A stretch of DNA of 32,610 nucleotides from Anaerolineales bacterium. Lineage in GTDB: Bacteria; Chloroflexota; Anaerolineae; Anaerolineales; UBA11858. Shown here one piece after another: positions 4,716-20,973 of this stretch. The position numbers and the translations under genes were made by a program. The notes under the pieces were generated by a model that saw only the letters and a program-made list of their open reading frames with translations, searched no databases and was not told where the DNA came from. Location of the stretch: positions 1 to 32,610 of the forward strand of contig JADHXE010000015.1 of the NCBI GenBank assembly GCA_016783125.1. The letters are read 5' to 3'. Positions within the stretch are counted from its first letter, which is position 1. Each line of letters opens with the position of its first letter.

Positions 4716-5141
4716 TTATTGCGCAAGCATTTCACCCAATGTGATGCAATCGGCAATCAGCCCGGGCAGATTGGGAGCCTCAAAGGCGATCCCCGGCGCG
4801 GGCTTGCGGTTGTGCTTGGTATCGGGTTCTTCGTGGTAGTGATGCGGGAAGGTTTCGGCTAAATCCTGATTTTGGGGATGGGGCTGCGGATCGTACCAGC
4901 GGATTTTCTCGTCCCCTCGGAAAATAGTATAACTGTAATCGATGATTTTCCTGATCCTGAAATCCAGGAACTCTCTGATTTTTAACACTAAACCATTTGT
5001 GAAGTGTACTTCCCCTTCCACTCTGGCGGTGAGTGCGCTGGTTGTATATAACCGCAGCGTTGACCTACGTATTTGCTCAGGATAATTTTCTGCCAGGCTA
5101 TAGATCAGCGCTTCGTAGTCGGCGTGGTCAAGGATGGCCAT
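4716..5141 (-). CDS. TumE/DUF6516-like putative toxin
   Basis: LTARVEGEVHFTNGLVLKIREFLDFR...IIDYSYTIFRGDEKIRWYDPQPH...TFPHHYHEEP..., DUF6516-like pattern. Confidence 0.6.
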   Translation of the reverse strand: MAILDHADYEALIYSLAENYPEQIRRSTLRLYTTSALTARVEGEVHFTNGLVLKIREFLDFRIRKIIDYSYTIFRGDEKIRWYDPQPHPQNQDLAETFPHHYHEEPDTKHNRKPAPGIAFEAPNLPGLIADCITLGEMLAQ

Positions 5142-5456
5142 TTATCTGATGGCAGGCAATGGGATAGCCGGTTCACGAGGATCAATCTCGATAAAACCTC
5201 TTTCTTGCCTGGCCTTTAAACGATCAACACGCTCCTGAGATAGCTGTCGCAAAATGGCTTCACGATCTAATTTGATCTGGTAAAAGGCTGACCATTCTGC
5301 GAACTCATCGGTGTGTTCTCCGTCATCCAGCAAACCCTGCATATACAAGTCATAAAAATCTGCCGAACTCAGCCAGTAAAGCCGCTCATAGCGCCGGGTG
5401 ATTTCATCGGCAGCACGAAGATCATCGAGAATTGCTGTAATGGTGATTTTATTCAT
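5142..5456 (-). CDS. Putative partner/antitoxin of the TumE-like gene
   Basis: MNKITITAILDDLRAADEITRRYERLYWLSSADFYDLYMQG...; directly abuts the downstream TumE-like ORF. Confidence 0.5.
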   Translation of the reverse strand: MNKITITAILDDLRAADEITRRYERLYWLSSADFYDLYMQGLLDDGEHTDEFAEWSAFYQIKLDREAILRQLSQERVDRLKARQERGFIEIDPREPAIPLPAIR

Positions 5457-5788
5457 TGGTACACTTTCCAAAGGTTGTTCTGTTGGTATTATACCCTACT
5501 CGATCCGATGCGGATACATGAGCAAAACATGAGCACATACCCTAATGCTGCGTTCAGATTATATCAGGCAAAGGCGCACAGATTTACTAAAGATCACCCC
5601 AAAAAGTTGTAAAATAATCAAAGATATATGCTAGAATTATGATAAATGTGGGTAGTTTGACAATCTTATATTAGCGGGTAGCAGCCCAACCGTTCGGCTG
5701 AGCTCACGACGAAGCCTCGTTGGATGGTATCTTCTCGTTATTTTGGGGTGGCACGAACCTGGAAAAATAATTTCCAACTGGTCATTAT

Positions 5789-5814
5789 CCTTGAAATTAG
5801 AACCGATTTCAAGG
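5789..5814. promoter_or_regulatory. Inverted repeat overlapping the RBS of the small HTH gene, possible operator
   Basis: CCTTGAAAT-tagaaccg-ATTTCAAGG, perfect 9-bp arms, 8 bp before ATG 5823; a second dyad TGGAAA-aataa-TTTCCA at 5760-5776. Confidence 0.5.
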
Positions 5815-5822
5815 AGTCAAAA

Positions 5823-6023
5823 ATGGCCAGATTACAGAAAGGTGAACGAGATGAACGCCGGAGGCAGATTTTCCAGGTTTTACAGCGCTGCCAGTGGGGA
5901 ATCCGGGAAAGTGAAATTGCCCAGGAATTGGGGCTGCGGAGGAGGACGGTGAACAATTACCTCAGGGAACTGCAGCGGGTTCACAAAGCCGAGAAAGACG
6001 GCTGGCTGTGGTATGCCCGATAG
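5823..6023 (+). CDS. Small HTH protein paralogous to the N-terminus of the Cas3 fusion
   Basis: MARLQKGERDERRRQIFQVLQRCQWGIRESEIAQELGLRRRTVNNYLRELQRVHKAEKDGWLWYAR; aaggag RBS. The ORF-track start at 5724 lacks such support. Confidence 0.65.
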   Translation: MARLQKGERDERRRQIFQVLQRCQWGIRESEIAQELGLRRRTVNNYLRELQRVHKAEKDGWLWYAR

Positions 6024-6194
6024 GCATTTGCCTATTTGTAATTTTCCAACTTTCCGTTAAACTGGAAGTATAACTAACATAAAGTACATAATATCCAATT
6101 TCGGAGTTTTATTTGTAAGTTGACATTGCAAAACTACGAAGGGCACAAAGGCATACCCTGAGTGAACCCGAAGGAAACACGAAGAAAACGAAAT

Positions 6195-6297
6195 GGGTGC
6201 GTTTCATTCCAGTGGAAGTAAAACCGGAAATAGGGGTGTGCGCCCCCCCCCGCACACCCCTATTTCCGGAACTTTTCCGCTCGTTTGAAACACACCC
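6195..6297. mobile_element. MITE-like element, family 1, copy 2, upstream of cas3
   Basis: gggtgcgtttca...tgaaacacaccc TIRs; perfect 9-bp duplication aaacgaaat (6186-6194 and 6298-6306); central hairpin ccggaaataggggtgtgcg. Confidence 0.88.
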
Positions 6298-6318: not shown

Positions 6319-9300
6319 ATGCCTCGGATCGAAGACCAACACAAACAAGAGATCAAACAGCAAATCTGGCTCAAGATTCAGCAGAACCAGGGCATCCGCA
6401 CCGCGGAGATAGCCGATCAACTCAAGCTGGACCGCCGCAGAGTGCAAAATTACCTGGCAGAATTGCGGGACGAGGGCAAGATCGAGCAGGAAGGTTGGGG
6501 TTGGTTGTCCCTGGAGTTTCGCGGGCCGCGCCTGTATCGCTTCGAGCTTTCGCCGGAAGAGGTGATCACCCTGTACCTGGGCGCCCGCCTGCTGGTGAAG
6601 CAGCATGACCAGCGCAACGAACCCGCCGAGACTGCTTTACGCAAACTGGCAACCGTCCTGCGCTCCGACGCCCCCATCGGCCAGGAGATCGAACGGGCAG
6701 CCGACGAACTGGCCCAACGTGAGGAAGACCACGAATACCAATCAATCTTCCGCAAGATTGCCCAGGCTTACGCTTACCGCAAGAAGCTCAAGCTGGTATA
6801 CAAACCGCCAGGGAGCAATCCATTCCCCACCGTTTTTTCTGTCTACCTGATCGAACCCTCCCTGGTGGGGGCAGCGACCTATATCATCGGCCACAGCAGC
6901 AATGTGGATGCGGTGCGCGAATACAAGCTGGGGCGCATCCAGTCGGCGGAATTGACGGACGAAAATTGCACCATCCCCCCTGAATACCAGGGATTGGAAG
7001 TGATGCGCCACGCCTGGTCGGTGATCGGCGGGGAGGCCAAAATAGAGGTCGTGCTGCGCTTCAGCCCAAAGGTACGCGAACGCGTCCTGGAAACCCGCTG
7101 GCACCCTTCGCAGGAGACCAAAGACGACCCCGAAAAAACCGGCTGGCTGCGCTGGCAGGTGAAAGTGCCCAGCACGCTGGATATGCTCCCCTGGATCCGC
7201 GGCTGGGGGGCGGATTGCGAGGTGGTGGGGCCGGAGGGGTTGCGCGAGAAATTGGAGACAGAAGCCAAACGGCTAATGCATCGATATAACATCGCTTCTC
7301 CAAAAACTACAGAACCCCAACAACGCCTGTTGCGTTGCTGGGGGAAGACCGGTAAACACGAACTGGATTTTCACCCGGCCCTGTTCCACATGCTTGATGT
7401 TGGGCATACCGCGTACCATCTGTTAAGCGCACCGGCCTCTCCCCGCTGGCGGAAAGCACTGGTGCGAGCATTCAACACCGACGATGAGACGTTAGTCTAT
7501 TGGTTGCCGTGGCTCATCGCGTTACACGACATTGGTAAAATCTCTGTTCCCTTCCAGGCGCAAAACGCATCCCAAAAAGCACGGCTGGAGCGGGAAGGTT
7601 TTGAATTCGGAGCATGGAAACCCAAAGACAAAATCCATCACACGGACATGGGGAGGCTATTCCTCAAATATGAGTATGACGAGGCGGACTTACCCCCCTG
7701 GCCGCAGCGGAACTGGCTTCGCCGGGCCTGGCTGGAGATGGTTGGCGGGCACCACGGCACTTTCCCGGGGCTACGGCAAGAGGGGGACTCCCTCTCCCGA
7801 AGCCGGAAACACATGAGAAGCCTGCAAGTGCCAGAAGAATGGGCGCAGCTACGCCAGCGTGCAGACCAACTTCTCCGCACGTTTTTCTTGTCCGCCACGC
7901 CTGTCCAATGGCCTGAACCCCAAAACGTATCAGTTGCGATTATGGCCTTAACCGGCTTTACAATTCTCTGTGATTGGTTGGGGTCCGACGAGCGGTACTT
8001 CATGCCGCATTCAGACACTGACCTGTTGGACTACGTTGCCCATAGCCGCCAACAGGCGCGTGAGGCTGTAACAAAAGCCGGGTTCTTTCAACCGAGCCAA
8101 AGTACTGCTCCCGCCAAATTCGAGGAATTATTTCCAGACCGTACACCTCCCCGCCCATTGCAACAGGCCATAGACGAAATCCCAGAGGAAATCCTGCAAC
8201 AGCCCTGTCTTGCCATCATCGAAGCACCCACCGGCGAAGGCAAGACCGAAGCCGCCCTCGCTCTGGCACACCGCGTTGCCCAACATAGCGGCACGGATGC
8301 CCTCTACTGCGCGTTGCCTACTATGGCTACCAGCAACCAGATGTTTAAGCGAGTGCAAACCCATCTATACCAGCGCTTGGGGCTGCCCACCCAGGCCAAA
8401 TTGGTTCACGGGCAGGCATTTCTCATGGAAGATGATCTGCGCCTGAAACCGCTTGGAGATGCTGAAAAAGGACCACACCCATCACTAGAATGGTTTGGGC
8501 CAAAAAAGAAAGCCTTGTTAGCCCCTTTTGGAGTAGGTACGGTAGATCAGGCCGAACTTGCCGCACTCAACGTGCGCCACAACGCCTTGCGGTTAATTGG
8601 ACTGGCCGGGAAAGTCGTCATCCTGGACGAAGTTCACGCTTACGACACCTATATGACCACCATCATCGAACAAATGCTGCGCTGGCTCTCCGCGTTGGGC
8701 AGCACGGTCATATTGCTCTCAGCCACCCTGCCCCAATCCCGCCGGACTGCTCTGGCGAAGGCTTACGGTGCCCCTTTTGAGACCTGTTCTGATCAGGAAC
8801 GCGACTATCCCAGCTTGTGGATTGGTGGTCAAAACGGAAGCCATCACGCCCTGCCCGAAGCTTACAAACTACAACAGGTCTTTCAACTTAAGCACCTGCA
8901 CATTCCCCACGAAGACGCGGCAGAAAAAGCCCGATGGCTGTTGAACGCAGTCGCGGAGGGAGGCTGTGCGTGCTGGATCACCAACACAGTGGATCGGGCG
9001 CAAAAACTTTATGAGGCCGTCACGCAAGCTGATCCAACGCTCACAGCATACCTGCTCCATGCCCGTTTTCCCCTCGAAGAACGCCAAAAACTTGAGGAAG
9101 ATATTACTACTCTCTTTGGACCCGGGGGTGCGCGTCCGCAACGCAGCGTCGTTATCGGCACACAGGTGTTGGAGCAAAGTCTGGATTTGGATTTCGACGT
9201 GATGGTTTCCGACCTGGCTCCTATAGACTTGCTCTTACAGCGCATGGGACGCGTGCATCGCCATGATAATTCTCGCCCGGAGGCGCACCAAGTTCCAACC

Positions 9301-9999
9301 TTGTGGGTCAACAGTGAACCCGATCTCGCAGACGATAACCGGGTACTGATGGGCGCAGACCGTTTTTATCACGAATACATCCTGCAAAAAACCTGGCAGG
9401 CTATCACCGGGAAAAATGTAATCCGGCTGCCGGATTACTACCGGCCCCTGGTGGAGGCGGTATACGCGCCTGGCGTGCCTGATGCAGGCGATCCCATGCA
9501 GGAAGCGTGGGATAAGCTGCAGAAACATGAAACCCTCGCTCGCGGCAAAGCCCGGCAATATCTTTTGCCTGCGCCCGACCCTCGGCGGCCTTTTTGTTAC
9601 TCCAGCCAGGTGACTTTCGAAGAAGACGACAACAGTGCGGCCTGGTTCGTCGCCCAAACCCGTCTGGGTGCAGAGAGCGTGACCATACTCCCCCTGGTGC
9701 GAGAAGGTGACAAAGCCAGATTGTATCCTCTGGATGAATGGGTAGACCTGACAACCGCGCCCGCGCGGCAGACCGCCTTGCGCCTGCTCCGCCGCACCTT
9801 GCGTCTCAGCCAGTACAATGCAGTAGCTTATTTCCGCGAACAGGGCAGCCCAACAGAAACCCTATTTCAAGACTCATCTCTGCTAAAATCTATCTATCCA
9901 TTGTGGCTGAAAAATGGTGCAACTGAAATCCCTGCCGGAGAGAGAACAATAAAATTGACACTGGACCCTGATTTAGGGTTGGTGATTGACAAATCGTAA
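6319..9999 (+). CDS. cas3: HTH-WYL-WCX regulator fused to Cas3 HD nuclease-helicase, type I-E
   Basis: N-terminal IRTAEIADQLKLDRRRVQNYLAELRDEGKIEQEGWGWL (HTH), IEPSLVGAATYIIGHSSNVDAVREYKLGRI (WYL-like) and VVLRFSPKVRERVLETRW...GADCEVVGPEGLREKL (WCX-like); then LLRCWGKTGKHELDFHPALFHMLDVGHTAYHLL, ALHDIGK, EAPTGEGKTEAAL, LDEVHAYD, SATLP, QRMGRVHRH. Confidence 0.92.
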   Translation: MPRIEDQHKQEIKQQIWLKIQQNQGIRTAEIADQLKLDRRRVQNYLAELRDEGKIEQEGWGWLSLEFRGPRLYRFELSPEEVITLYLGARLLVKQHDQRNEPAETALRKLATVLRSDAPIGQEIERAADELAQREEDHEYQSIFRKIAQAYAYRKKLKLVYKPPGSNPFPTVFSVYLIEPSLVGAATYIIGHSSNVDAVREYKLGRIQSAELTDENCTIPPEYQGLEVMRHAWSVIGGEAKIEVVLRFSPKVRERVLETRWHPSQETKDDPEKTGWLRWQVKVPSTLDMLPWIRGWGADCEVVGPEGLREKLETEAKRLMHRYNIASPKTTEPQQRLLRCWGKTGKHELDFHPALFHMLDVGHTAYHLLSAPASPRWRKALVRAFNTDDETLVYWLPWLIALHDIGKISVPFQAQNASQKARLEREGFEFGAWKPKDKIHHTDMGRLFLKYEYDEADLPPWPQRNWLRRAWLEMVGGHHGTFPGLRQEGDSLSRSRKHMRSLQVPEEWAQLRQRADQLLRTFFLSATPVQWPEPQNVSVAIMALTGFTILCDWLGSDERYFMPHSDTDLLDYVAHSRQQAREAVTKAGFFQPSQSTAPAKFEELFPDRTPPRPLQQAIDEIPEEILQQPCLAIIEAPTGEGKTEAALALAHRVAQHSGTDALYCALPTMATSNQMFKRVQTHLYQRLGLPTQAKLVHGQAFLMEDDLRLKPLGDAEKGPHPSLEWFGPKKKALLAPFGVGTVDQAELAALNVRHNALRLIGLAGKVVILDEVHAYDTYMTTIIEQMLRWLSALGSTVILLSATLPQSRRTALAKAYGAPFETCSDQERDYPSLWIGGQNGSHHALPEAYKLQQVFQLKHLHIPHEDAAEKARWLLNAVAEGGCACWITNTVDRAQKLYEAVTQADPTLTAYLLHARFPLEERQKLEEDITTLFGPGGARPQRSVVIGTQVLEQSLDLDFDVMVSDLAPIDLLLQRMGRVHRHDNSRPEAHQVPTLWVNSEPDLADDNRVLMGADRFYHEYILQKTWQAITGKNVIRLPDYYRPLVEAVYAPGVPDAGDPMQEAWDKLQKHETLARGKARQYLLPAPDPRRPFCYSSQVTFEEDDNSAAWFVAQTRLGAESVTILPLVREGDKARLYPLDEWVDLTTAPARQTALRLLRRTLRLSQYNAVAYFREQGSPTETLFQDSSLLKSIYPLWLKNGATEIPAGERTIKLTLDPDLGLVIDKS

Positions 10000-10056: not shown

Positions 10057-11625
10057 ATGGAAAAACCCTCTTTCAACCTTTGGACGGAGCCATGGGTCAC
10101 GGTCGAACGGGATGACGGCAGCACAGACACGCTCAGCCTGCAAGACGCGCTGCTGCAAGCCCACCGGCTGCGTGCCCTGTATGACCCTTCGCCCCTGGTG
10201 GTGGTGGGCGTTCACCGGCTGCTGACTGCCATCTTGCAGGATACTTTCTCCCCACAATATGAAGAAGACCTGGCGGACATCTGGCACACCGGGCAATTTA
10301 CTGAAGAAACCATCCTGCAATTTGGGGAGCAATATGCCCATCGCTTTGACCTGTTCTCAGAGACCGAGCCGTTTATGCAGAGCGCGGATTTGCCTTTGCA
10401 GTCACGCAAACAGGATAAGAGCAAACTCAAAAGCGTTGCCTATCTTTTCCAAGAGATTCCTGCTGCAACTGCTGTCGCGCACTACCGGCACGGAAATGAG
10501 AATGATTATATTCTGAGTCCTGCTAGCGCAGCAAAGGGGCTGGTGATGATTCCGGCTTTTGCAACTTCGGGTGGTGCCGGGATTAGGCCCTCGATAAATG
10601 GTGTTCCCCCGATTTATATCCTCCCTGGCGGAAACACCCTGTTCGAACACCTGACAACTTCGCTCATAACACCCCATTACCAACCTCGGGTGCGTGACAA
10701 GCAAAATGATTTGGTGTGGTGGCGGCGAGAACCCATTGTAGAACATAAAAAAGAATGGGGATCAATCGGATATTTGCACAGCCTGACATTCCCTGCCCGG
10801 CGGGTGCGGTTGCACCCTGAACGAGGCCCAGTTCATTGTTCCAGGTCTGGAGAGAATTCGCCGTGGGGTGTACGCACAATGACCTTTCAAATGGGCGAAA
10901 GCCGTCCAAAAGATGCCGCTTTCTGGTTTGATCCTTTTGCAGCTTATCGTTTACCGGACGATAAAGCCAAGAAAAAACAACCACCAACTCCTATCCGGCC
11001 TGTGGCAGGGCGAGTGTTGTGGCGGGAGTACGCAGGGTTGTTTTTGCAGAACCAAAAGAGCAACACTCGACAGCCAGATGTTTTACGGCAGATAGCATAC
11101 CTGAGTGCGGAACACGATATTGCCAGTGATGGCGTTGATTATCCTTTCCGTTGCGTTGGTATCCGTACTGATATGAAAGCTAAAATCTTTGAATGGGTTG
11201 ATATTGGTTTCGACGTGTCTCCCAAAATCATACGCGATCCACAAGCAGGGTGGATGGTACAAGAAGCGATTGATTTTGCTGTCAAAGGCGAGAAAATTAT
11301 TAAGCAAGTCTTCCGCAGCGTTTTTGGCGGCCCGTCGGCTAAGAATGAACGCTACAAACGCAGCAAAGCTCAGATGGCAACGGATTACTGGCGTACCCTA
11401 TCCCCGTATTTTTATCAATATATTGTGGGTATGGGCGAGGTTGCCCAACGAGAAGATCATCAAATCCAATGGGTAGATATTGTTGTAAATGCCGGGCTGG
11501 AAGTTTTTCGACAGGTAGCTGCTAACCTCGGAGACAGCGCGGCTGCGCTCCACCTGCGAGTGGAAGGTGAAGCCTTTTGCCGTGCCCGTTTGTACAAAGC
11601 CCGAAATAAACAAAAAGGAGAATGA
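10057..11625 (+). CDS. casA: Cascade large subunit Cas8e (Cse1/CasA)
   Basis: MEKPSFNLWTEPWVTVERDDGSTDTLSLQDALLQAHRLRALYDPSPLVVVGVHRLLTAIL, Cse1-like N-terminus; operon position. Confidence 0.93.
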   Translation: MEKPSFNLWTEPWVTVERDDGSTDTLSLQDALLQAHRLRALYDPSPLVVVGVHRLLTAILQDTFSPQYEEDLADIWHTGQFTEETILQFGEQYAHRFDLFSETEPFMQSADLPLQSRKQDKSKLKSVAYLFQEIPAATAVAHYRHGNENDYILSPASAAKGLVMIPAFATSGGAGIRPSINGVPPIYILPGGNTLFEHLTTSLITPHYQPRVRDKQNDLVWWRREPIVEHKKEWGSIGYLHSLTFPARRVRLHPERGPVHCSRSGENSPWGVRTMTFQMGESRPKDAAFWFDPFAAYRLPDDKAKKKQPPTPIRPVAGRVLWREYAGLFLQNQKSNTRQPDVLRQIAYLSAEHDIASDGVDYPFRCVGIRTDMKAKIFEWVDIGFDVSPKIIRDPQAGWMVQEAIDFAVKGEKIIKQVFRSVFGGPSAKNERYKRSKAQMATDYWRTLSPYFYQYIVGMGEVAQREDHQIQWVDIVVNAGLEVFRQVAANLGDSAAALHLRVEGEAFCRARLYKARNKQKGE

Positions 11626-11628
11626 CCT

Positions 11629-12099
11629 ATGAAACAACCAGACGAACGCATCACCAAATTCATTGCAACTCTGGAAAAACTCGACCCAGGCGAGCGCGCC
11701 CGCCTCAAACGCAACGCGGGCAAACGCCTGGATGAAGCCCGCAGCCTGGGACTGTTCTACCGCATTTTGCCGTATGGCGTGCCCCGTTACCAGGAAGAAA
11801 TGTACTTCCTAGTCGCTACCCTGTACCCGTTGGCCGAAGGCTGTGGAGAGAAAATTTTTGGCGCATCCATGCGGCGTGCGCGGGATAGCCAAAACGAAAA
11901 AGGGCTGAACCGGCGCATGGAAGTCTTGTTGGACACCGATGAACGGCAGCTTCCCTTCCGGCTGCGCCAGGCCGTGCGCTACCTGTATTCAAAACGTGTG
12001 CCTGTCAACTGGCCCTGTTTGCTACGCGACTTGCTGCAATGGAACGCGCCTAAACGTTACATTCAACAAGCCTGGGCACGGGCTTATTTCGCCAAATAA
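11629..12099 (+). CDS. casB: Cascade small subunit Cse2 (Cas11/CasB)
   Basis: 156 aa; LDPGERARLKRNAGKRLDEARSLGLFYRILP..., conserved position after cas8e. Confidence 0.9.
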   Translation: MKQPDERITKFIATLEKLDPGERARLKRNAGKRLDEARSLGLFYRILPYGVPRYQEEMYFLVATLYPLAEGCGEKIFGASMRRARDSQNEKGLNRRMEVLLDTDERQLPFRLRQAVRYLYSKRVPVNWPCLLRDLLQWNAPKRYIQQAWARAYFAK

Positions 12100-12131: not shown

Positions 12132-12178
12132 AAAGGATGAAAACATATTTCTCAAAATTACAACAAGGAGACCAAATC

Positions 12179-13291
12179 ATGTTAATCCAAATCCACATCT
12201 TGCAAAACTATGCCCCTTCCAACCTGAACCGGGACGACACTGGCTCCCCAAAAGATGCCTTCTTCGGCGGCTTGAAGCGCGGCCGCGTTTCCAGCCAGTG
12301 CATCAAGCGTAGCATCCGCCACTCCGAAATTTTTAAGGAAGCCTTCCAAGCACGAAACTTACTGGCTTCCCGCACCAAACGACTGCCGGGCATGATTGAC
12401 GAGGAACTAAAAGCAATGGAGGTAGACGAAGAAATACGCGCCGCCATCGTCGCCCGCATTCCCGAAATCGGGCGCGAATCCGGAAAAGGGGGTGGGACGA
12501 AAACCGAAGAGGGCGAAATTGAGACCAAACAACTGATCTTCATCAGCCCCAATGAACGCCGCCCCCTGGCAGAGAAACTTCTGGCAACTTATCAAGAAAA
12601 AGGTGCGAAGAATTGGCCTAAAGTGAAAATTGGCGACCTTACAAAAGCGCTAGGCGCAAGTGTGCCGCGCTCCGTAGATGTTTCCATGTTTGGCCGCATG
12701 ACCACCTCCGCGGCTTTTGAAGATGTGCAGGCTGCCGTGCAGGTTGCTCACAGCTTGACCACCAGCGCGGTGGAAACCGAGTTCGATTACTTCACAGCCG
12801 TAGACGACATTTCCGGGGAATCAGGCGCAGGCATGATCGGCGATGTGGAATTCAACAGTGCCACCCATTACAAATACTTCAACATCCACTGGGAAGAGTT
12901 GGTCAAAAACCTGGGTGACGATAAAGGCATTGCCAAAGAAGCGGTGCTGGCCCTGATAGAAGCCGCGGCTACTGCCCAACCAAGCGGCAAGCAAAACAGC
13001 TTCGCCGCCCACAACCTGCCTGACCTGATTTTGATTGAAGTCAGCAAACGTAATCTGCCGGTGAGTTACGCCAACGCTTTTCTCAAGCCGGTTCGCCAGA
13101 CTTACGATAAATCTTTGATGGATGTCTCGGTCGCGGCTCTGGATGATTACGCCAAACGCCTGCACAAGGTCTACGGGGTGAATGGATTACATGCCTATGT
13201 TGCAGTAGGCGAACACGACATCACTGGAGCGGACGGACAGGAAAGTCTGGTCGACTTAGAAGCCTGGCTCGCGGCACAATTGCCAGCGTAA
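12179..13291 (+). CDS. casC: Cascade backbone Cas7e (Cse4/CasC)
   Basis: MLIQIHILQNYAPSNLNRDDTGSPKDAFFGGLKRGRVSSQCIKRSIR; start set by aaggag RBS rather than the track start 12137. Confidence 0.94.
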   Translation: MLIQIHILQNYAPSNLNRDDTGSPKDAFFGGLKRGRVSSQCIKRSIRHSEIFKEAFQARNLLASRTKRLPGMIDEELKAMEVDEEIRAAIVARIPEIGRESGKGGGTKTEEGEIETKQLIFISPNERRPLAEKLLATYQEKGAKNWPKVKIGDLTKALGASVPRSVDVSMFGRMTTSAAFEDVQAAVQVAHSLTTSAVETEFDYFTAVDDISGESGAGMIGDVEFNSATHYKYFNIHWEELVKNLGDDKGIAKEAVLALIEAAATAQPSGKQNSFAAHNLPDLILIEVSKRNLPVSYANAFLKPVRQTYDKSLMDVSVAALDDYAKRLHKVYGVNGLHAYVAVGEHDITGADGQESLVDLEAWLAAQLPA

Positions 13292-13309: not shown

Positions 13310-14041
13310 ATGTCAAACACCCTTTTCCTCCGTCTCGAAGGTCCCTTGCAATCCTGGGGGGAGCGCGGGCGATGGAGCCAGCGAGACACGGCTCCCGAAC
13401 CCACCAAATCTGGCATCGTTGGCTTACTAGCCTGCACGTTGGGGCTGCAAGCTGATGAAGACCTTACCCAGCTCTCCCGGCAAATCCAACTCGGCGTGCG
13501 CTGCGACCGCTCCGGCGTGTCCTACACCGACTATCACACAATTGGTGGCGGGTACGATACCCCCCAACTGCTCACCGCCGCGGGAAAACTGAAGTACACC
13601 CCAGGTAACGAACCTCACACTGAACTCACCTACCGGGAATACCTGCACGATGCCTCGTTCTTAGCAGCGGTGCAGGCCACTCCCGAACTGATCCACCGCC
13701 TAGCAGAGGCCGTGCAAGCCCCATATTGGGTGATCTATCTAGGGCGCAAATCCTGCCCGCCCAGCTGCCCGCTGTATGAAGGAGTTGGGGATTATCCATC
13801 CTTGCAAACCGCTTTACAAGATTGGCCCTGGTATTGCCCGGAAGCCAAAGAAGAAATCCAGGTGAATGCCCGCACCGTCCTCCCTGACCAGCCTGCCGAT
13901 GGGGCCGCGCGCAGGCGACACGAAGTCATTTCTCGTTCCCGCCGAATGTATGGTCCGTACTATACACAGGATATATTGCTCAAAAACATCAATGTAATTC
14001 CCGGCTTTCCACCATTCGCACCAAAATTTCAAGATATTTGA
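13310..14041 (+). CDS. casD: Cascade subunit Cas5e (CasD)
   Basis: LFLRLEGPLQSWGERGRWSQRDTAPEPTKSGIVGLLACTLG. Confidence 0.94.
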   Translation: MSNTLFLRLEGPLQSWGERGRWSQRDTAPEPTKSGIVGLLACTLGLQADEDLTQLSRQIQLGVRCDRSGVSYTDYHTIGGGYDTPQLLTAAGKLKYTPGNEPHTELTYREYLHDASFLAAVQATPELIHRLAEAVQAPYWVIYLGRKSCPPSCPLYEGVGDYPSLQTALQDWPWYCPEAKEEIQVNARTVLPDQPADGAARRRHEVISRSRRMYGPYYTQDILLKNINVIPGFPPFAPKFQDI

Positions 14042-14164
14042 TACCTTTGCCCCCGCCGGGTGAACACTACTTTTATCGACTGGCCGCCGTTTATCACTGA
14101 AACCTCCGCTGTTTTGGGAACACCTGAAGTCAGAAAGAAATGAGCCGAATTAAATGAACAGCCG

Positions 14165-14506
14165 TTACACATGCAGCCAGGCCCCCAGCCGTCTTTTGAC
14201 CGAAACCATGCGGTGGCTGCTGACCTTGCCCAAACGGGCGTTGATTACCGATGCGTCCACTGTGGCTAGCCGCGCGATGCGTACTACAGAACGCACCTTG
14301 AGACCGGTTTCGGCAAAATCGCGATCTTCCGGTTCGATGATCTCATCGAAATCGGGAACGGCCTGGTGGACTCGTGAAGTGATCAGCGCCAGAAGCACAT
14401 CTTCATGGCGGCCCGGCGCGATGGCAACGACCAGTGCAGGACGCAGTTTGCCAACCTGCAAATCGGTTTGCGGAAAACGAATCAGAACGATATCCCCGGG
14501 TTTCAT
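14165..14506 (-). CDS. PemK/MazF-family toxin
   Basis: MKPGDIVLIRFPQTDLQVGKLRPALVVAIAPG...LITSRVHQAVPDFDEII; overlaps the upstream ORF by 4 nt. Confidence 0.82.
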   Translation of the reverse strand: MKPGDIVLIRFPQTDLQVGKLRPALVVAIAPGRHEDVLLALITSRVHQAVPDFDEIIEPEDRDFAETGLKVRSVVRIARLATVDASVINARLGKVSSHRMVSVKRRLGAWLHV

Positions 14507-14739
14507 GGCCGGTAAACTTCCTGGGCGTCTTTCAGGGTGTATGTCACTTCATCATTTTCCCGAAAGAGTTGCTCCAGGGCCATATCCTGCCATTGCTGGT
14601 CGCTCCAGTCATCATAAAGCGGCGCGATTTTGCGGCGCACCATCAAGAATTGCGCAAAATCTGCGATTTGCTGGACAATATCATCCGGTAAATGGTCAAT
14701 TTGCTGGAGCAACTGCTCGCGAAGCGGGGCTGTTTTCAT
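14503..14739 (-). CDS. Putative cognate antitoxin (DUF2281-like)
   Basis: MKTAPLREQLLQQIDHLPDDIVQQIADFAQFLMVRRK...; immediately upstream of and overlapping the toxin ORF. Confidence 0.7.
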   Translation of the reverse strand: MKTAPLREQLLQQIDHLPDDIVQQIADFAQFLMVRRKIAPLYDDWSDQQWQDMALEQLFRENDEVTYTLKDAQEVYRP

Positions 14740-14831
14740 GGTTCTACCTCACAGCTTTCGAATTACGTCATGGATAAAGGTTGATCTTTTTAACATTTCC
14801 ATTTTAACATGTTTTGACTGGAGAACATCCC

Positions 14832-15497
14832 ATGTACCTATCTCGACTAATCCTCAACCCCCGCTCGCGGCAAGTCCGCAGCGAACTGGCCCGCCCCTAC
14901 CAGATGCACAAGACCATCTTGCGGGCTTTCCCTGAAACCTTACCGACCGCTGAACGCGTCCTCTTCCGCCTGGAAGAAGACCCTCGCACCGGTATGTTGA
15001 TGCTCCTGGTGCAATCGCAGCACTCACCCGATTGGGGACACTTGCTCAATGGTAAGAATTACCTGCGGCTGGTTGAGTCGCTTCCTGCCCAAATTGCAGA
15101 AAACCCCAGCACCAAAGAGGTCAACCTGCAATTGAGCGCCGGGCAACCCCTATGCTTCCGCCTCTACGCCAACCCCACCAAAAAGATCAAAGTGGAAGGC
15201 AAGAAAAACGGCCAGCGCGTCGGCATCTTTAAAGAAGAAGACCAACACCAATGGTTAGCACGCAAACTAGAAGCCGCGGGCACCTCTCTCCTGAGGGCCA
15301 ACACATCCCAAAGCGGCAATATCTACGGCCAGCAAAACAAAGCTGGTCAGAAAAATAAACTCACGATGCTGGGCGTGCGCTTCGAAGGTGTATTGCAAGT
15401 CATCGATCCCCAGGCCCTGCTGCAAGCTGTGAACAACGGTATTGGCAGCGGCAAAGGGATGGGCTTTGGCCTGCTCTCTTTAGGGCCAGCCAGGTAG
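14832..15497 (+). CDS. casE: CRISPR RNA endoribonuclease Cas6e (CasE)
   Basis: MYLSRLILNPRSRQVRSELARPYQMHKTILRAFPE...GSGKGMGFGLLSL, a Cas6e-like glycine-rich end; start chosen at ATG 14832 after ggagaa. Confidence 0.94.
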   Translation: MYLSRLILNPRSRQVRSELARPYQMHKTILRAFPETLPTAERVLFRLEEDPRTGMLMLLVQSQHSPDWGHLLNGKNYLRLVESLPAQIAENPSTKEVNLQLSAGQPLCFRLYANPTKKIKVEGKKNGQRVGIFKEEDQHQWLARKLEAAGTSLLRANTSQSGNIYGQQNKAGQKNKLTMLGVRFEGVLQVIDPQALLQAVNNGIGSGKGMGFGLLSLGPAR

Positions 15498-15765: not shown

Positions 15766-16695
15766 ATGCGAGAACCCATGCGAGATTTACACGAACTCCC
15801 CAAGTTGCGTGACAGCTTGAGCTATCTGTATGTTGAACATGCCACGCTCAACCAGAAAAATCAGGCAGTTGAATTTTGGCGAGAAGATGAAGGGAGGGTG
15901 ATGATTCCCGTTGCCAATCTGTCGGTATTGCTGCTTGGCCCTGGAACCAGTATCTCCCACGCGGCGATAAAAACCCTGGCTGATAATGGCTGTTCTGTCT
16001 TGTGGGTTGGAGAAAATGCCACCCGCTTCTATGCCGGTGGCACTGGTGAAACCCGCAAGGCTTACCATCTCCTGCGCCAGTCTGAACTTGCCAACGATCC
16101 CCAAACCCGTCTGGCTGTGATCCGGCGTATGTACCAATACCGCTTTGATGAGCCGCTTGACCTGGACTTAAGCTTGCAGCAAATCCGCGGCAAGGAGGGT
16201 GCCCGCGTTCGCTCCAGCTACTATCGTTTCAGCCAGGAGTTTGGCGTTAAATGGAATGGCCGTCGTTACGACCGTAATCAGTGGCGCAACTCCGATCCCA
16301 TCAATCGGGCGCTTTCTGCAGCCAACGCTCTGCTTAATGGCCTGTGCCATGCAGCTATCGTTTCTGGCGGCTACTCTGCGGCCATTGGCTTCATTCACAC
16401 CAGCAAGCAGCTTTCTTTCGTCTATGATATTGCTGACCTCTACAAGGCTGAGATCACCATCCCGCTAGCCTTTCAAATCGTGGCCGAATCGGAAGAGAAA
16501 GTCGAAGCTCGGGTGCGGGCTGCCTGCCGTGAAAAATTCAAAGAAGCCAGGCTGCTGCGGCGCGTATTGCCGGATATCGATGAGTTGTTGTCGATTGATG
16601 ATGATCCCGTTCCGGATTTCGGCGATGTGGATGCCGACCCCGCCCTGCCGACGCCCCTTTGGGAAGCCCCTGCTGAAGAAGAGGAGTCAAAATGA
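15766..16695 (+). CDS. cas1: CRISPR integrase Cas1 (type I-E)
   Basis: LPKLRDSLSYLYVEHATLNQKNQAVEFW...GCSVLWVGENATRFYAGG...ALLNGLCHAAIVSGGYSAAIGFIHTSKQLSFVYDIADLYKAEI. Confidence 0.95.
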   Translation: MREPMRDLHELPKLRDSLSYLYVEHATLNQKNQAVEFWREDEGRVMIPVANLSVLLLGPGTSISHAAIKTLADNGCSVLWVGENATRFYAGGTGETRKAYHLLRQSELANDPQTRLAVIRRMYQYRFDEPLDLDLSLQQIRGKEGARVRSSYYRFSQEFGVKWNGRRYDRNQWRNSDPINRALSAANALLNGLCHAAIVSGGYSAAIGFIHTSKQLSFVYDIADLYKAEITIPLAFQIVAESEEKVEARVRAACREKFKEARLLRRVLPDIDELLSIDDDPVPDFGDVDADPALPTPLWEAPAEEEESK

Positions 16696-17000
16696 TAGTA
16701 ATGATCCTCGAAAAAGTGCCCCTCCGTTTACGCGGTGAATTGACCCGCTGGCTGCTGGAACCGCATACTGGCGTATTTGTCGGACACGTCAATGCCATGG
16801 TGCGCGACCGTCTCTGGGAGAAATGCTGCAAGGCGCGCGGGGGCGCTGGCGGTGTGCTGCAAATCTGGTCGACCAATACGGAACAGCGTTTCAAAATGAG
16901 GCTGCATGGACGAACCAGGCGAAGGATTGTAGAGCTGGAAGGGTTGCAACTGATCTGCATCCCAGATGCGACAGATGGCGAGGAAGCTGAGGAAAAATAG
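16692..17000 (+). CDS. cas2: Cas2 (type I-E, CasF-like)
   Basis: MIVMILEKVPLRLRGELTRWLLEPHTGVFVGHVNAMVRDRLWEKC; ATGA overlap with cas1. Confidence 0.94.
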   Translation: MIVMILEKVPLRLRGELTRWLLEPHTGVFVGHVNAMVRDRLWEKCCKARGGAGGVLQIWSTNTEQRFKMRLHGRTRRRIVELEGLQLICIPDATDGEEAEEK

Positions 17001-17072: not shown

Positions 17073-19305
17073 GATGTCCCCACACACGTGGGGGTGAACC
17101 GATTACTTATTTGAAACCGAAGATAGGCCAAAACGATGTCCCCACACACGTGGGGGTGAACCGATGATTGGCTCATTTGGGAGTGCGCTACTGGCGATGT
17201 CCCCACACACGTGGGGGTGAACCGCTGGCGGGGTTGGTCACACGCTGACGGCAGCAGATGTCCCCACACACGTGGGGGTGAACCGTTGTAGCCCCGCATT
17301 ACTGCAAGAGCATCTTCGATGTCCCCACACACGTGGGGGTGAACCGCTTGCTAGATTACGCTTTGAAATGGAAAATGGGGATGTCCCCACACACGTGGGG
17401 GTGAACCGTTTACGCCACTCCCGATCTGTCAACTCGCCCCGATGTCCCCACACACGTGGGGGTGAACCGCCTGTGCATGCGTGCATTAGACCGACTTTAC
17501 ACGATGTCCCCACACACGTGGGGGTGAACCGTTTTTTACAATAGTGATAACTTCATCTCCATGCGATGTCCCCACACACGTGGGGGTGAACCGCTCGTGC
17601 TGCTGCTCGGAAGGGTCGCCTGAGCAGATGTCCCCACACACGTGGGGGTGAACCGTACGATATTCTCCGCAAGATCGGCAGCTTTGTGATGTCCCCACAC
17701 ACGTGGGGGTGAACCGTATTGATGGCGCAGCCTGAAACGTGGCATCAATGATGTCCCCACACACGTGGGGGTGAACCGAATTGATTGAATATGGTCACTG
17801 GTCAGATGAACGATGTCCCCACACACGTGGGGGTGAACCGGCTGGAAGCAGAGTTGAGTGGCGGCGGAACATGATGTCCCCACACACGTGGGGGTGAACC
17901 GTCATGCCGTGTTGGTTCTGGTTTCCCCTCTGGCGATGTCCCCACACACGTGGGGGTGAACCGAAACATTCCCCTGATCCTACCTTTGTGGGATAGATGT
18001 CCCCACACACGTGGGGGTGAACCGAGGCATGGAGACTATTCGCAGCCGAAACCATGCGATGTCCCCACACACGTGGGGGTGAACCGTCTTATACTTCACG
18101 CGGCACCTCGACAAAGGGAGATGTCCCCACACACGTGGGGGTGAACCGGTCATGGGATGGCTATCGACAAGACAAGGTTGGGATGTCCCCACACACGTGG
18201 GGGTGAACCGAGTGGGCTGAGAGGCGGGCGCACGGCTGGTTTACGATGTCCCCACACACGTGGGGGTGAACCGCCAGAGGACGACCCCTGCCACGCCGAT
18301 ACCGGGATGTCCCCACACACGTGGGGGTGAACCGAGAGCCGCCCCACAAGCGCAGCATCGGAATTGGATGTCCCCACACACGTGGGGGTGAACCGCGACA
18401 CGACGGCAAATAGCACGGCGAACCATAGATGTCCCCACACACGTGGGGGTGAACCGTAGACCACTTTCATTGCGCCCGATCTACCATAGATGTCCCCACA
18501 CACGTGGGGGTGAACCGTACTATCAACCTTTGGTTGTACCGATGTCGGCGATGTCCCCACACACGTGGGGGTGAACCGTCATCTTAGAAGTTGATGAGGC
18601 CGACCTTCAAGATGTCCCCACACACGTGGGGGTGAACCGTAATACCATGCCAAAAACGCGGGTGGGTCACGGATGTCCCCACACACGTGGGGGTGAACCG
18701 GACATCAAAGAAAGAATGGCTGCAACTATTCGCGATGTCCCCACACACGTGGGGGTGAACCGTCAAAGACAGTCCACCGCCGACGAGAGAGGAGAGATGT
18801 CCCCACACACGTGGGGGTGAACCGTGACATCGGGATATTATACAAAAAATGGCAAAAGATGTCCCCACACACGTGGGGGTGAACCGCTGGGACAGCCTTT
18901 ATTCTTCGGAAATTTGAACGATGTCCCCACACACGTGGGGGTGAACCGAATCCCACCTGAAATAGTATCTCCAACAACAAAGATGTCCCCACACACGTGG
19001 GGGTGAACCGTCATGAAGGCCATACCCAAAGCGGCTGAAATCAGATGTCCCCACACACGTGGGGGTGAACCGCGGCAGTAGATGCAGCATGAACCGGCGA
19101 TGTCGATGTCCCCACACACGTGGGGGTGAACCGATAACTACAACAAAGTGTCCGTTAAAGGTCATGATGTCCCCACACACGTGGGGGTGAACCGGAGCAA
19201 AAAATGACCACGAAAAACGTCCAATCGATGTCCCCACACACGTGGGGGTGAACCGACAAACAGGCCAAACAGCACCAACTGAGAAATCGATGTCCCCACA
19301 CACGC
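17073..19305 (+). CRISPR. Type I-E array: 36 intact 29-bp repeats GATGTCCCCACACACGTGGGGGTGAACCG plus an interrupted 37th; 36 spacers, about 32-34 bp
   Basis: Repeat starts read by eye at 17073, 17135, 17196, 17257 ... 19166, 19227; the 37th begins at 19289 and is split after 19305. Confidence 0.98.
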
Positions 19306-20343: not shown

Positions 20344-20973
20344 TTAATCGAATAGTAAGCCAGCAATCATATCTTGATCTTTCGATGTGTAGGATTCTAC
20401 AAACTCCCGATATGCCTGGCGCGATGAAAATAGTGACAATATGATTTCAGGTTTTGGCAATGTCCCTTCTCGGATTCCTATGTATTCGCGATAGCTGGAA
20501 AACTCCCAATCTTCGGGGCGCTTTACTAAATTTGCGGGCACAGGGTTGATATGAATGTAGCGCGATAAATGGATGAGATAACGATCTGTCCCAACGTGTT
20601 TGGCTTGGAAAGCGCCTTGAAACAAGGATCCAACGCGATCATATCTGTTGTTCATTGCCTTGGTGTAGGAGATGGAGAACAATTTCATCGCCTTAGACAC
20701 TTTTTTGGAGACTTCCGAAGTCTCCAAGACTTCGGAAGTCTCGGTGTCACTTACTTGCATGAGTAGATGATAATGATTTGGCATCAGGCAATAGGCTACG
20801 ATCTCTACGGTGGGAATTACGAATTTGCGTAACCGTCCCAGAAAGAATAGATAGTTCTCCCGCTCATAAAAAATTTCCGCGCGGTTATTGCTGCGATTGT
20901 AGAGATGATAATATTCGTTTACGCAAAATGGCACATCGCGTCTTGGAATGATTTCCTCCAACACTAACTTCAA
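20344..20973 (-). CDS. REP-associated tyrosine transposase (RAYT)-like, Y1/IS200-type
   Basis: VNEYYHLYNRSNNRAEIFYERENYLFFLGRL...EIVAYCLMPNHYHLLMQV...NRYDRVGSLFQGAFQAKHV...YIHINPVPANLVKRPEDWEFSSYREY; HYH is the HUH-type motif. Start uncertain (track start is TTG). Confidence 0.87.
   Translation of the reverse strand: MKLVLEEIIPRRDVPFCVNEYYHLYNRSNNRAEIFYERENYLFFLGRLRKFVIPTVEIVAYCLMPNHYHLLMQVSDTETSEVLETSEVSKKVSKAMKLFSISYTKAMNNRYDRVGSLFQGAFQAKHVGTDRYLIHLSRYIHINPVPANLVKRPEDWEFSSYREYIGIREGTLPKPEIILSLFSSRQAYREFVESYTSKDQDMIAGLLFD
20709..20741. repeat. 33-bp REP-like pair (15-3-15) inside the RAYT-like coding region
   Basis: AGACTTCCGAAGTCT-cca-AGACTTCGGAAGTCT; read in-frame as part of ETSEVLETSEVS. 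Confidence 0.85.

What the first reader, a model, noticed from the sequence alone, without database searches (positions are those of the whole stretch)
6319..9999. Cas3 fused at its N-terminus to an HTH-WYL-WCX transcription regulator
One uninterrupted ORF joins a complete-looking WYL-type regulator (about aa 1-330) to a complete-looking Cas3 (HD, Walker A, DEVH, C-terminal helicase motifs). WYL proteins are established CRISPR-associated regulators or ligand sensors, but usually as separate proteins. A fusion would tie the interference nuclease to a DNA-binding, probably ligand-sensing module, suggesting cas autoregulation or signal-gated Cas3 recruitment. I do not recall this architecture being characterised.
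Basis: partly seen in the sequence, partly recalled or inferred. Interest (0 to 1): 0.88.

Follow-up and report, generated by a model that had tools for sequence, protein, structure and literature searches.

The report
Swappable regulator head on CRISPR nuclease
In this Anaerolineales-type bacterium the CRISPR DNA-shredder Cas3 carries a complete gene-regulator (HTH-WYL-WCX) fused to its front; such fusions were noted before, but here the regulator 'head', with its promoter DNA and a small helper gene, turns out to be exchanged repeatedly between different CRISPR subtypes, probably as an autoregulatory sensor unit.

Summary
ORF 6319-9999 (1226 aa) is one uninterrupted protein: wHTH, three-helix bundle, WYL, WCX, a short linker, and a complete type I-E Cas3. 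It heads an I-E operon with a 36-repeat array. It is not a sequencing error: 49 non-redundant in-frame WYL::Cas3 fusions were found, 19 on I-E Cas3 and 30 on I-C Cas3, nearly all in Chloroflexota. The architecture is not new. Makarova 2014 mentions WYL-Cas3 fusions in one sentence, and PADLOC's Cas3c profile spans the head.

I found no description of four further features. (1) A 66-aa winged-HTH gene sits upstream (window 5823-6023; 40 of 49 fusions). (2) A conserved promoter-like element, TTTCCA-N9-TAnnnT, precedes both genes in 16/16 cassettes of this head clade. (3) Heads are swapped between I-C and I-E Cas3, with crossovers clustering at a conserved WCX motif (LPWxRGWGAD). (4) The window's own gene is such a recombinant: its nearest Cas3 relative (84% aa) carries another head.

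The head is closest to DriD and PafBC, which are activated by ssDNA. Best reading: an exchangeable autoregulatory sensor head controlling cas expression, perhaps gated by ssDNA. Binding, ligand and sign are inferred, not shown.

The parts
5760..5776 (.). Palindrome TGGAAAAATAATTTCCA, half-sites of promoter-like element A upstream of the mini-HTH
   Evidence: only match in the window with up to 3 mismatches; only exact match of the related pattern in the genome. TGGAA half 5' of TTTCCA in the 15 cassettes with enough sequence.
5771..5791 (+). Promoter-like element A: TTTCCA-N9-TATCCT
   Evidence: 16/16 cassettes of the head clade, shuffle rate about 0.2%; window expectation 0.26, found 2.
5788..5815 (.). 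Perfect 10-bp inverted repeat TCCTTGAAAT/ATTTCAAGGA overlapping the -10-like hexamer and the Shine-Dalgarno of the mini-HTH
   Evidence: an inverted repeat here in 16/16 cassettes (the same stem in 15), with arm sequences that change in step; role unknown.
5823..6023 (+). mini-HTH gene, 66 aa winged HTH (family m1)
   Evidence: m1 homologue directly upstream of 15 fused genes of this head clade, on both I-C and I-E Cas3; a second family m2 upstream of 25 others.
6040..6063 (+). Promoter-like element B: AATTTTCCAACTTTCCGTTAAACT (TTTCCA-N9-TAAACT) upstream of wyl::cas3
   Evidence: only exact copy in the genome.
6201..6291 (.). MITE-like 91-nt hairpin repeat inserted between element B and the fused gene
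   Evidence: roughly 40 copies across the genome; not part of the conserved cassette.
6319..6510 (+). Head: N-terminal winged HTH (aa 1-64)
   Evidence: helices 6-21, 28-35, 39-51 plus wing.
6553..6714 (+). Head: helical linker (three-helix-bundle region, aa 79-132)
   Evidence: by analogy to DriD.
6745..6951 (+). Head: WYL domain (aa 143-211), with Y188, R200, K203, R206
   Evidence: conservation (R206 invariant, K203 and I207 at least 90%).
7039..7275 (+). Head: WCX domain (aa 241-319)
   Evidence: E 6e-17.
7186..7224 (+). Crossover hot spot LPWIRGWGADCE (aa 290-302) where heads have been exchanged
7282..7341 (+). Linker between head and Cas3 (aa 322-341)
   Evidence: low confidence (block pLDDT 55) between two well-folded domains.
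7339..8001 (+). Cas3 HD nuclease domain (aa 341-561)
8161..9279 (+). Cas3 SF2 helicase (aa 615-987)
   Evidence: motifs.
9661..9981 (+). Cas3 C-terminal domain (aa 1115-1221)
10057..11625 (+). cse1/cas8e
   Evidence: TIGR02547.
11629..12099 (+). cse2/cas11
   Evidence: TIGR02548.
12137..13291 (+). cas7e
   Evidence: TIGR01869.
13310..14041 (+). cas5e
   Evidence: TIGR01868.
14814..15497 (+). cas6e
   Evidence: TIGR01907.
15766..16695 (+). cas1e
   Evidence: TIGR03638.
16692..17000 (+). cas2e
   Evidence: TIGR01873.
17073..19255 (.). CRISPR array, 36 repeats of GATGTCCCCACACACGTGGGGGTGAACCG (end estimated from the last listed copies)

Best explanation
The protein is a type I-E Cas3 whose N-terminus is a complete DriD/PafBC-like transcription regulator. 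The head, the mini-HTH gene and the two flanking promoter elements act as one exchangeable autoregulatory cassette for the cas operon. The head's HTH, the mini-HTH, or both bind the TTCCAA elements at about -26/-35 of two promoters, one before the mini-HTH and one before wyl::cas3. The WYL domain senses a nucleic-acid ligand, most likely ssDNA. Liganded head then raises (or, less likely, derepresses) cas transcription. Fusion to Cas3 puts the sensor on the enzyme that makes ssDNA and ties sensor level to Cas3 level. Shown here: domain anatomy, conserved cassette, conserved elements, repeated head swapping with upstream DNA co-inherited. Inferred: DNA binding, ssDNA as ligand, activation rather than repression, and any feedback from Cas3 products.
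For: The head aligns end to end with DriD (E 9e-23) and folds like DriD, then PafBC, CapW and BrxR. DriD and PafBC are activated by ssDNA bound in the WYL domain, and PafB's HTH reads a -26 motif (PMC12340889; PMC11804915). PafB residues implicated in ssDNA binding (Y196, R208, R211, R214) have the same spacing as Y188, R200, K203, R206 here; K203 is kept in at least 90% and R206 in all 65 aligned heads. The element TTTCCA-N9-TAnnnT occurs before both genes in 16/16 cassettes at nearly fixed positions, shuffle rate 0.2-0.4%. Counting TAnnnT as the -10, the TTCCAA half-site falls at -26 to -21. The element is found with 17/17 head-clade-1 loci and 0/33 other fused loci within 700 bp, independent of Cas3 subtype (p 1e-13 against p 0.77). 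Upstream DNA and head recombine as a unit: L135 (I-E) matches I-C loci at 78-80% nt from -327 to +935 and then not at all, while matching I-E L117 from +877 on. A mini-HTH gene lies upstream of 40 of 49 fusions.
Against: No binding, expression or ligand data exist. The element could be bound by the mini-HTH alone: site 2 follows mini family m2 across two head clades. An element between -35 and -10 fits repression as well as activation. DriD itself does not regulate its own gene (PMC12340889). Upstream DNA would be co-inherited in any 5'-end recombination. The Trp of the WYL triplet is absent here (TYI), and clade-2 heads lack R200.
Confidence: 0.55

Rival explanations
1. Enzyme module: the WYL-WCX head is mainly a ssDNA-binding or allosteric part of Cas3, holding unwound DNA or dimerising Cas3, and gene regulation is secondary.
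For: WYL in Thermotoga elfii PIF1 helicase binds ssDNA and couples ATPase to unwinding, and WYL1 stimulates Cas13d (reviewed in PMC9122601). Cas3 makes ssDNA. The fused state is stable: only 2 changes on the Cas3e tree.
Against: The complete winged HTH is kept. Heads swap freely between I-C and I-E Cas3 tails (7 and 12 head-clade changes; AU p 2e-68 and 4e-43), which fits poorly with tight co-adaptation. Promoter elements and the mini-HTH travel with the head. AF2 of head plus HD shows no confident packing (pTM 0.52, low-confidence linker).
Confidence: 0.2
2. Repressor with DNA anchoring: the head-Cas3 dimer sits on its operator as a CapW/BrxR-type repressor that also stores Cas3; infection-derived ligand releases it. 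(A sub-case of autoregulation, with the opposite sign.)
For: CapW and BrxR are WYL regulators of defence operons (PMC9122588, PMC9122589, PMC9122601) and Sll7009 represses a I-D locus (PMC9122601). The elements lie in the spacer between -35 and -10, where a repressor would block polymerase.
Against: Sequence and fold are closer to the activators DriD and PafBC than to CapW/BrxR. The promoters lack good -35 boxes, as expected for activator-dependent ones.
Confidence: 0.2
3. Two products: an internal start or cleavage yields a separate regulator and a normal Cas3, so the fusion is only a co-translation device.
For: Separate WYL genes directly upstream of cas3e exist in relatives (L049, L050, L051, L151). 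An in-frame ATG lies at 7276.
Against: M320 is not conserved (6 of 52) and has no Shine-Dalgarno. 49 fusions keep the frame, and fused Cas3e persists in two clades over large divergence.
Confidence: 0.05
4. Assembly or sequencing error joining two genes.
For: The window comes from a fragmented assembly (318 contigs).
Against: 49 non-redundant fusions in independent genomes, some on single-contig chromosomes.
Confidence: 0.01

Closest known systems
WYL-Cas3 fusions noted by Makarova et al. 2014 (PMC4012209) and PADLOC Cas3c model PDLC01766
   Same: WYL head fused to a HD plus SF2 helicase Cas3; I-C fusions match the PADLOC profile end to end (1109-1366 bits).
   Different: The window protein is a I-E Cas3; PADLOC Cas3e PDLC01767 (680 positions) matches it only from aa 329. 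The mini-HTH, promoter elements and head swapping were not found described.
DriD (Caulobacter crescentus, PDB 8tp8/8tpk/9pfq)
   Same: Same domain order wHTH-3HB-WYL-WCX; best sequence and fold match.
   Different: DriD is free-standing, about 16% identical, and does not regulate its own gene.
PafBC (Mycobacterium, PDB 9fnd)
   Same: WYL-WCX activator triggered by ssDNA; HTH reads a -26 motif; similar spacing of basic residues.
   Different: Heterodimer, unfused; motif sequence differs; activation not tested here.
BrxR / CapW WYL regulators of defence loci
   Same: HTH-WYL-dimerisation regulators located upstream of defence operons.
   Different: Weaker fold match (E about 1e-7), not fused to effectors.
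Sll7009 (Synechocystis I-D) and WYL1 (Cas13d)
   Same: WYL proteins acting on CRISPR systems.
   Different: Separate genes; one a repressor, the other an RNA-binding stimulator of the effector.

Membership tests
Type I-E Cas3 (CRISPR helicase-nuclease) | HD nuclease plus SF2 helicase with intact motifs | tested here: met
Type I-E Cas3 (CRISPR helicase-nuclease) | Encoded with cse1-cse2-cas7-cas5-cas6e-cas1e-cas2e and a CRISPR array | tested here: met
Type I-E Cas3 (CRISPR helicase-nuclease) | Cascade-dependent DNA degradation | not testable with these tools
   Needs biochemistry
WYL transcription regulators (HTH-WYL-WCX) | Winged HTH, WYL and WCX in this order | tested here: met
   WYL and WCX above the Pfam cutoff, HTH Pfam matches just below cutoff but fold clear
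WYL transcription regulators (HTH-WYL-WCX) | Binds a specific operator and changes transcription | not testable with these tools
   Only indirect: conserved elements
DriD/PafBC ssDNA-sensing activators | Basic and Tyr residues of the WYL ssDNA groove | tested here: inconclusive
   Y188, R200, K203, R206 match PafB spacing and K203/R206 are conserved, but R200 is absent in clade 2 and no structure with ssDNA was modelled
DriD/PafBC ssDNA-sensing activators | Activator site at fixed distance upstream of the -10 in promoters with poor -35 | tested here: inconclusive
   TTTCCA-N9-TAnnnT 16/16; -10 assignment is inferred, no transcription start known
WYL::Cas3 fusions (Makarova 2014) | WYL domain in the same polypeptide as Cas3 | tested here: met

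The most novel reading that the evidence does not exclude
Type I CRISPR systems of Chloroflexota use a transferable, ssDNA-gated autoregulatory head (promoter elements, mini-HTH, HTH-WYL-WCX) that is recombined between Cas3 enzymes of different subtypes at a conserved WCX motif, so regulation evolves as a plug-in module independent of the interference machinery.
Probability: 0.4. Interest if true: 0.8.

Novelty: new variant of a known kind. Interest (0 to 1): 0.62.

Why it matters
How bacteria decide when to switch on a DNA-shredding CRISPR system is poorly known. Here the regulator is physically part of the shredder, and the evolutionary record of dozens of genomes shows that this regulator with its control DNA is a unit that can be swapped between CRISPR subtypes. 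That predicts a specific operator, a specific ligand class and a feedback loop, all directly testable, and it points to a modular control part for type I CRISPR systems.

Tried and rejected
Sequencing error: rejected (49 fusions). Internal start at 7276: not conserved, no Shine-Dalgarno. The hairpin at 6201-6291 as operator or attenuator: rejected, it is a roughly 40-copy genomic repeat. A genome-wide regulon: no exact further copies of the palindromic element or element B in the genome, so control looks local. Intragenomic donors for the swaps: most swapped genomes lack a second system of the other subtype, with G408 the clear exception. AF2 of 1200 aa failed; the 600-aa model gives no confident head-Cas3 packing. 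A first count of head changes used mini-HTH presence as label and mislabelled L061 (5 changes); redone by head clade (7 changes).
Full report
OBSERVATION. ORF 6319-9999 encodes 1226 aa without a stop. Pfam and PADLOC place a WYL and a WCX domain (aa 143-211, 241-319), HTH matches near aa 17-57, and a full Cas3 from aa 341 on. The Cas3 motifs HDIGK, GEGKT, DEVH and GRVHR are present. Downstream lie cse1, cse2, cas7e, cas5e, cas6e, cas1e and cas2e and a 36-repeat array. The finding is real at the stated coordinates.

THE HEAD. A profile of 65 heads finds DriD (8tp8, E 9e-23, aligned end to end), then PafBC. The AF2 model (pLDDT 88.6) is closest in fold to DriD (E 1.5e-14, TM 0.63-0.66), then PafBC, CapW and BrxR. 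The head is therefore a whole regulator, not a remnant. In PafB, Y196, R208, R211 and R214 were among the residues mutated with loss of ssDNA binding (R211/R214 as a pair, R208 in a triple mutant; PMC11804915). Y188, R200, K203 and R206 here have the same spacing; K203 is kept in at least 90% and R206 in all aligned heads. The mapping is by spacing and the shared motif, not by a structure with ligand.

HOW COMMON. A phylum search, an order search and a scan of named genomes gave, after removal of near-duplicates, 94 WYL proteins: 30 fused to I-C Cas3, 19 fused to I-E Cas3 (the window's included), 28 encoded directly upstream of a cas3, and 17 others. Subtypes were checked with NCBIfam on representatives. 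The automatic E/C/G labels for partial loci are less certain. The same genus and family as the window contain fusions (L134, L115, L114).

PRIOR KNOWLEDGE. Makarova et al. [quoted passage not shown] PADLOC model PDLC01766 (Cas3c) covers the head: I-C fusions match positions 4-1009 of 1009 with 1109-1366 bits. The architecture as such is therefore known. I found no functional study and no mention of the features below in the open literature searched; subscription papers are not covered.

THE CASSETTE. Upstream of the fused gene lies a 66-aa winged-HTH gene (5823-6023), 43-44% identical to the head's own first 64 residues. Homologues (family m1) precede 15 fused genes with related heads, and a second family (m2) precedes 25 others. 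Together that is 40 of 49 fusions against 3 of 26 assessable separate WYL genes. Two further fused loci (L116, L145) are cut by contig ends inside this region.

THE ELEMENTS. Before the mini-HTH and before wyl::cas3 stands TTTCCA-N9-TAnnnT. Both copies are present in 16/16 cassettes at nearly fixed positions, allowing the variants TTGCCA, TTTCTA and CAnnnT. The window has exactly these two copies, against 0.26 expected. The first copy carries an additional TGGAA half-site, forming a palindrome. If TAnnnT is the -10, TTCCAA sits at -26 to -21, and PafB's HTH binds a -26 motif in its promoters. Other head clades carry a different element, GTTGCAGAA, also often in two copies flanking the mini-HTH. 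Element 1 is found in 17/17 loci of head clade 1 and 0/33 other fused loci within 700 bp, with no link to Cas3 subtype; widening to 900 bp adds two stray single matches outside the clade (L121, L129). The motif was defined on clade 1, so the 17/17 is partly by construction; the near absence elsewhere and the lack of a subtype link are not. Element 2 tracks mini family m2 across two head clades, so the binder may be the mini-HTH, the head, or both. Single copies of element 1 at clade-1 heads without a mini-HTH (L061, and the separate genes L065 and L069) favour the head as at least one binder.

HEAD SWAPPING. On the Cas3e tree fused proteins form two groups (2 changes), yet head clades change 7 times on that tree and 12 times on the Cas3c tree; in the latter 19 of 200 random shuffles do as well. 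On the head tree, Cas3 subtype changes 12 times, and holding L135+L117 or L131+L126 together is rejected (AU p 2e-68, 4e-43; the pairs were chosen from the Cas3e tree, not from the head tree). At DNA level the joins are sharp. L135 (I-E) is 78-80% identical to I-C loci from -327 to +935 and unmatched after that, while it matches the I-E locus L117 from +877 through the operon. L131 (I-E) matches I-C L033 up to +1040 and I-E L126 from +974. In genome G408 a I-E and a I-C fusion share -269 to +875 at 87%. For 34 of 52 fused proteins the nearest head and nearest tail belong to different relatives, and 24 of these 34 crossovers begin between aa 280 and 319, around LPWxRGWGAD. These pairs are not all independent events.

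THE WINDOW'S OWN SWAP. L114, from the same family, has 84% identical Cas3e, but its preserved WCX piece is of clade-2 type up to the LPWVRGWGAD motif, whereas the window has a clade-1 head. After the motif the two are nearly the same. The two genes therefore differ by a head exchange with its join at aa 290-303; which of them kept the older head is not settled.

MECHANISM. Free exchange of heads among Cas3 enzymes of different subtypes argues that the head works largely independently of the Cas3 surface. Co-inheritance and conservation of promoter elements argue that its work is transcriptional control of its own operon. The homology to DriD and PafBC suggests ssDNA as ligand and activation as outcome, but CapW/BrxR-type repression is not excluded. 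Why the regulator is fused to Cas3 remains open; placing an ssDNA sensor on an ssDNA-producing enzyme is the most economical idea and is inference. The AF2 model of head plus HD shows two folded parts and a poorly defined linker, which neither proves nor excludes contact.

LIMITS. No expression or binding data could be obtained.

Noticed in passing
window 6201-6291, also 1526-1614: A 91-nt hairpin repeat (MITE-like) present in roughly 40 copies in this genome, one inserted between promoter element B and wyl::cas3.
   Followed up: partly
window 5788-5815: Perfect inverted repeat overlapping the -10-like hexamer and Shine-Dalgarno of the mini-HTH; arm sequences change in step in relatives. Could be a second operator or an RNA hairpin.
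   Followed up: partly
window 14154-14777: 207-aa ORF between cas5e and cas6e without any Pfam or NCBIfam match; may be a lineage-specific insertion in the operon or spurious.
   Followed up: partly
window 4716-5471 (-): TumE-like toxin gene (Pfam TumE, E 2e-13) next to a 109-aa ORF, a likely toxin-antitoxin pair just upstream of the CRISPR locus.
   Followed up: no
L062, L064, L065, L067-L070, L073, L078: Heads of the same superclade encoded as separate genes directly upstream of an ~810-aa Cas3 with helicase first and HD last (I-G-like, below the curated cutoff), i.e. a third Cas3 type served by this regulator family.
   Followed up: partly
L116 and L145 (genome G408): One genome carries a I-E and a I-C WYL::Cas3 with nearly the same head (87% nt), suggesting shared regulation of two CRISPR systems.
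   Followed up: partly
window 20344-20973 (-): IS200-like transposase (Y1_Tnp) shortly beyond the end of the CRISPR array.
   Followed up: no
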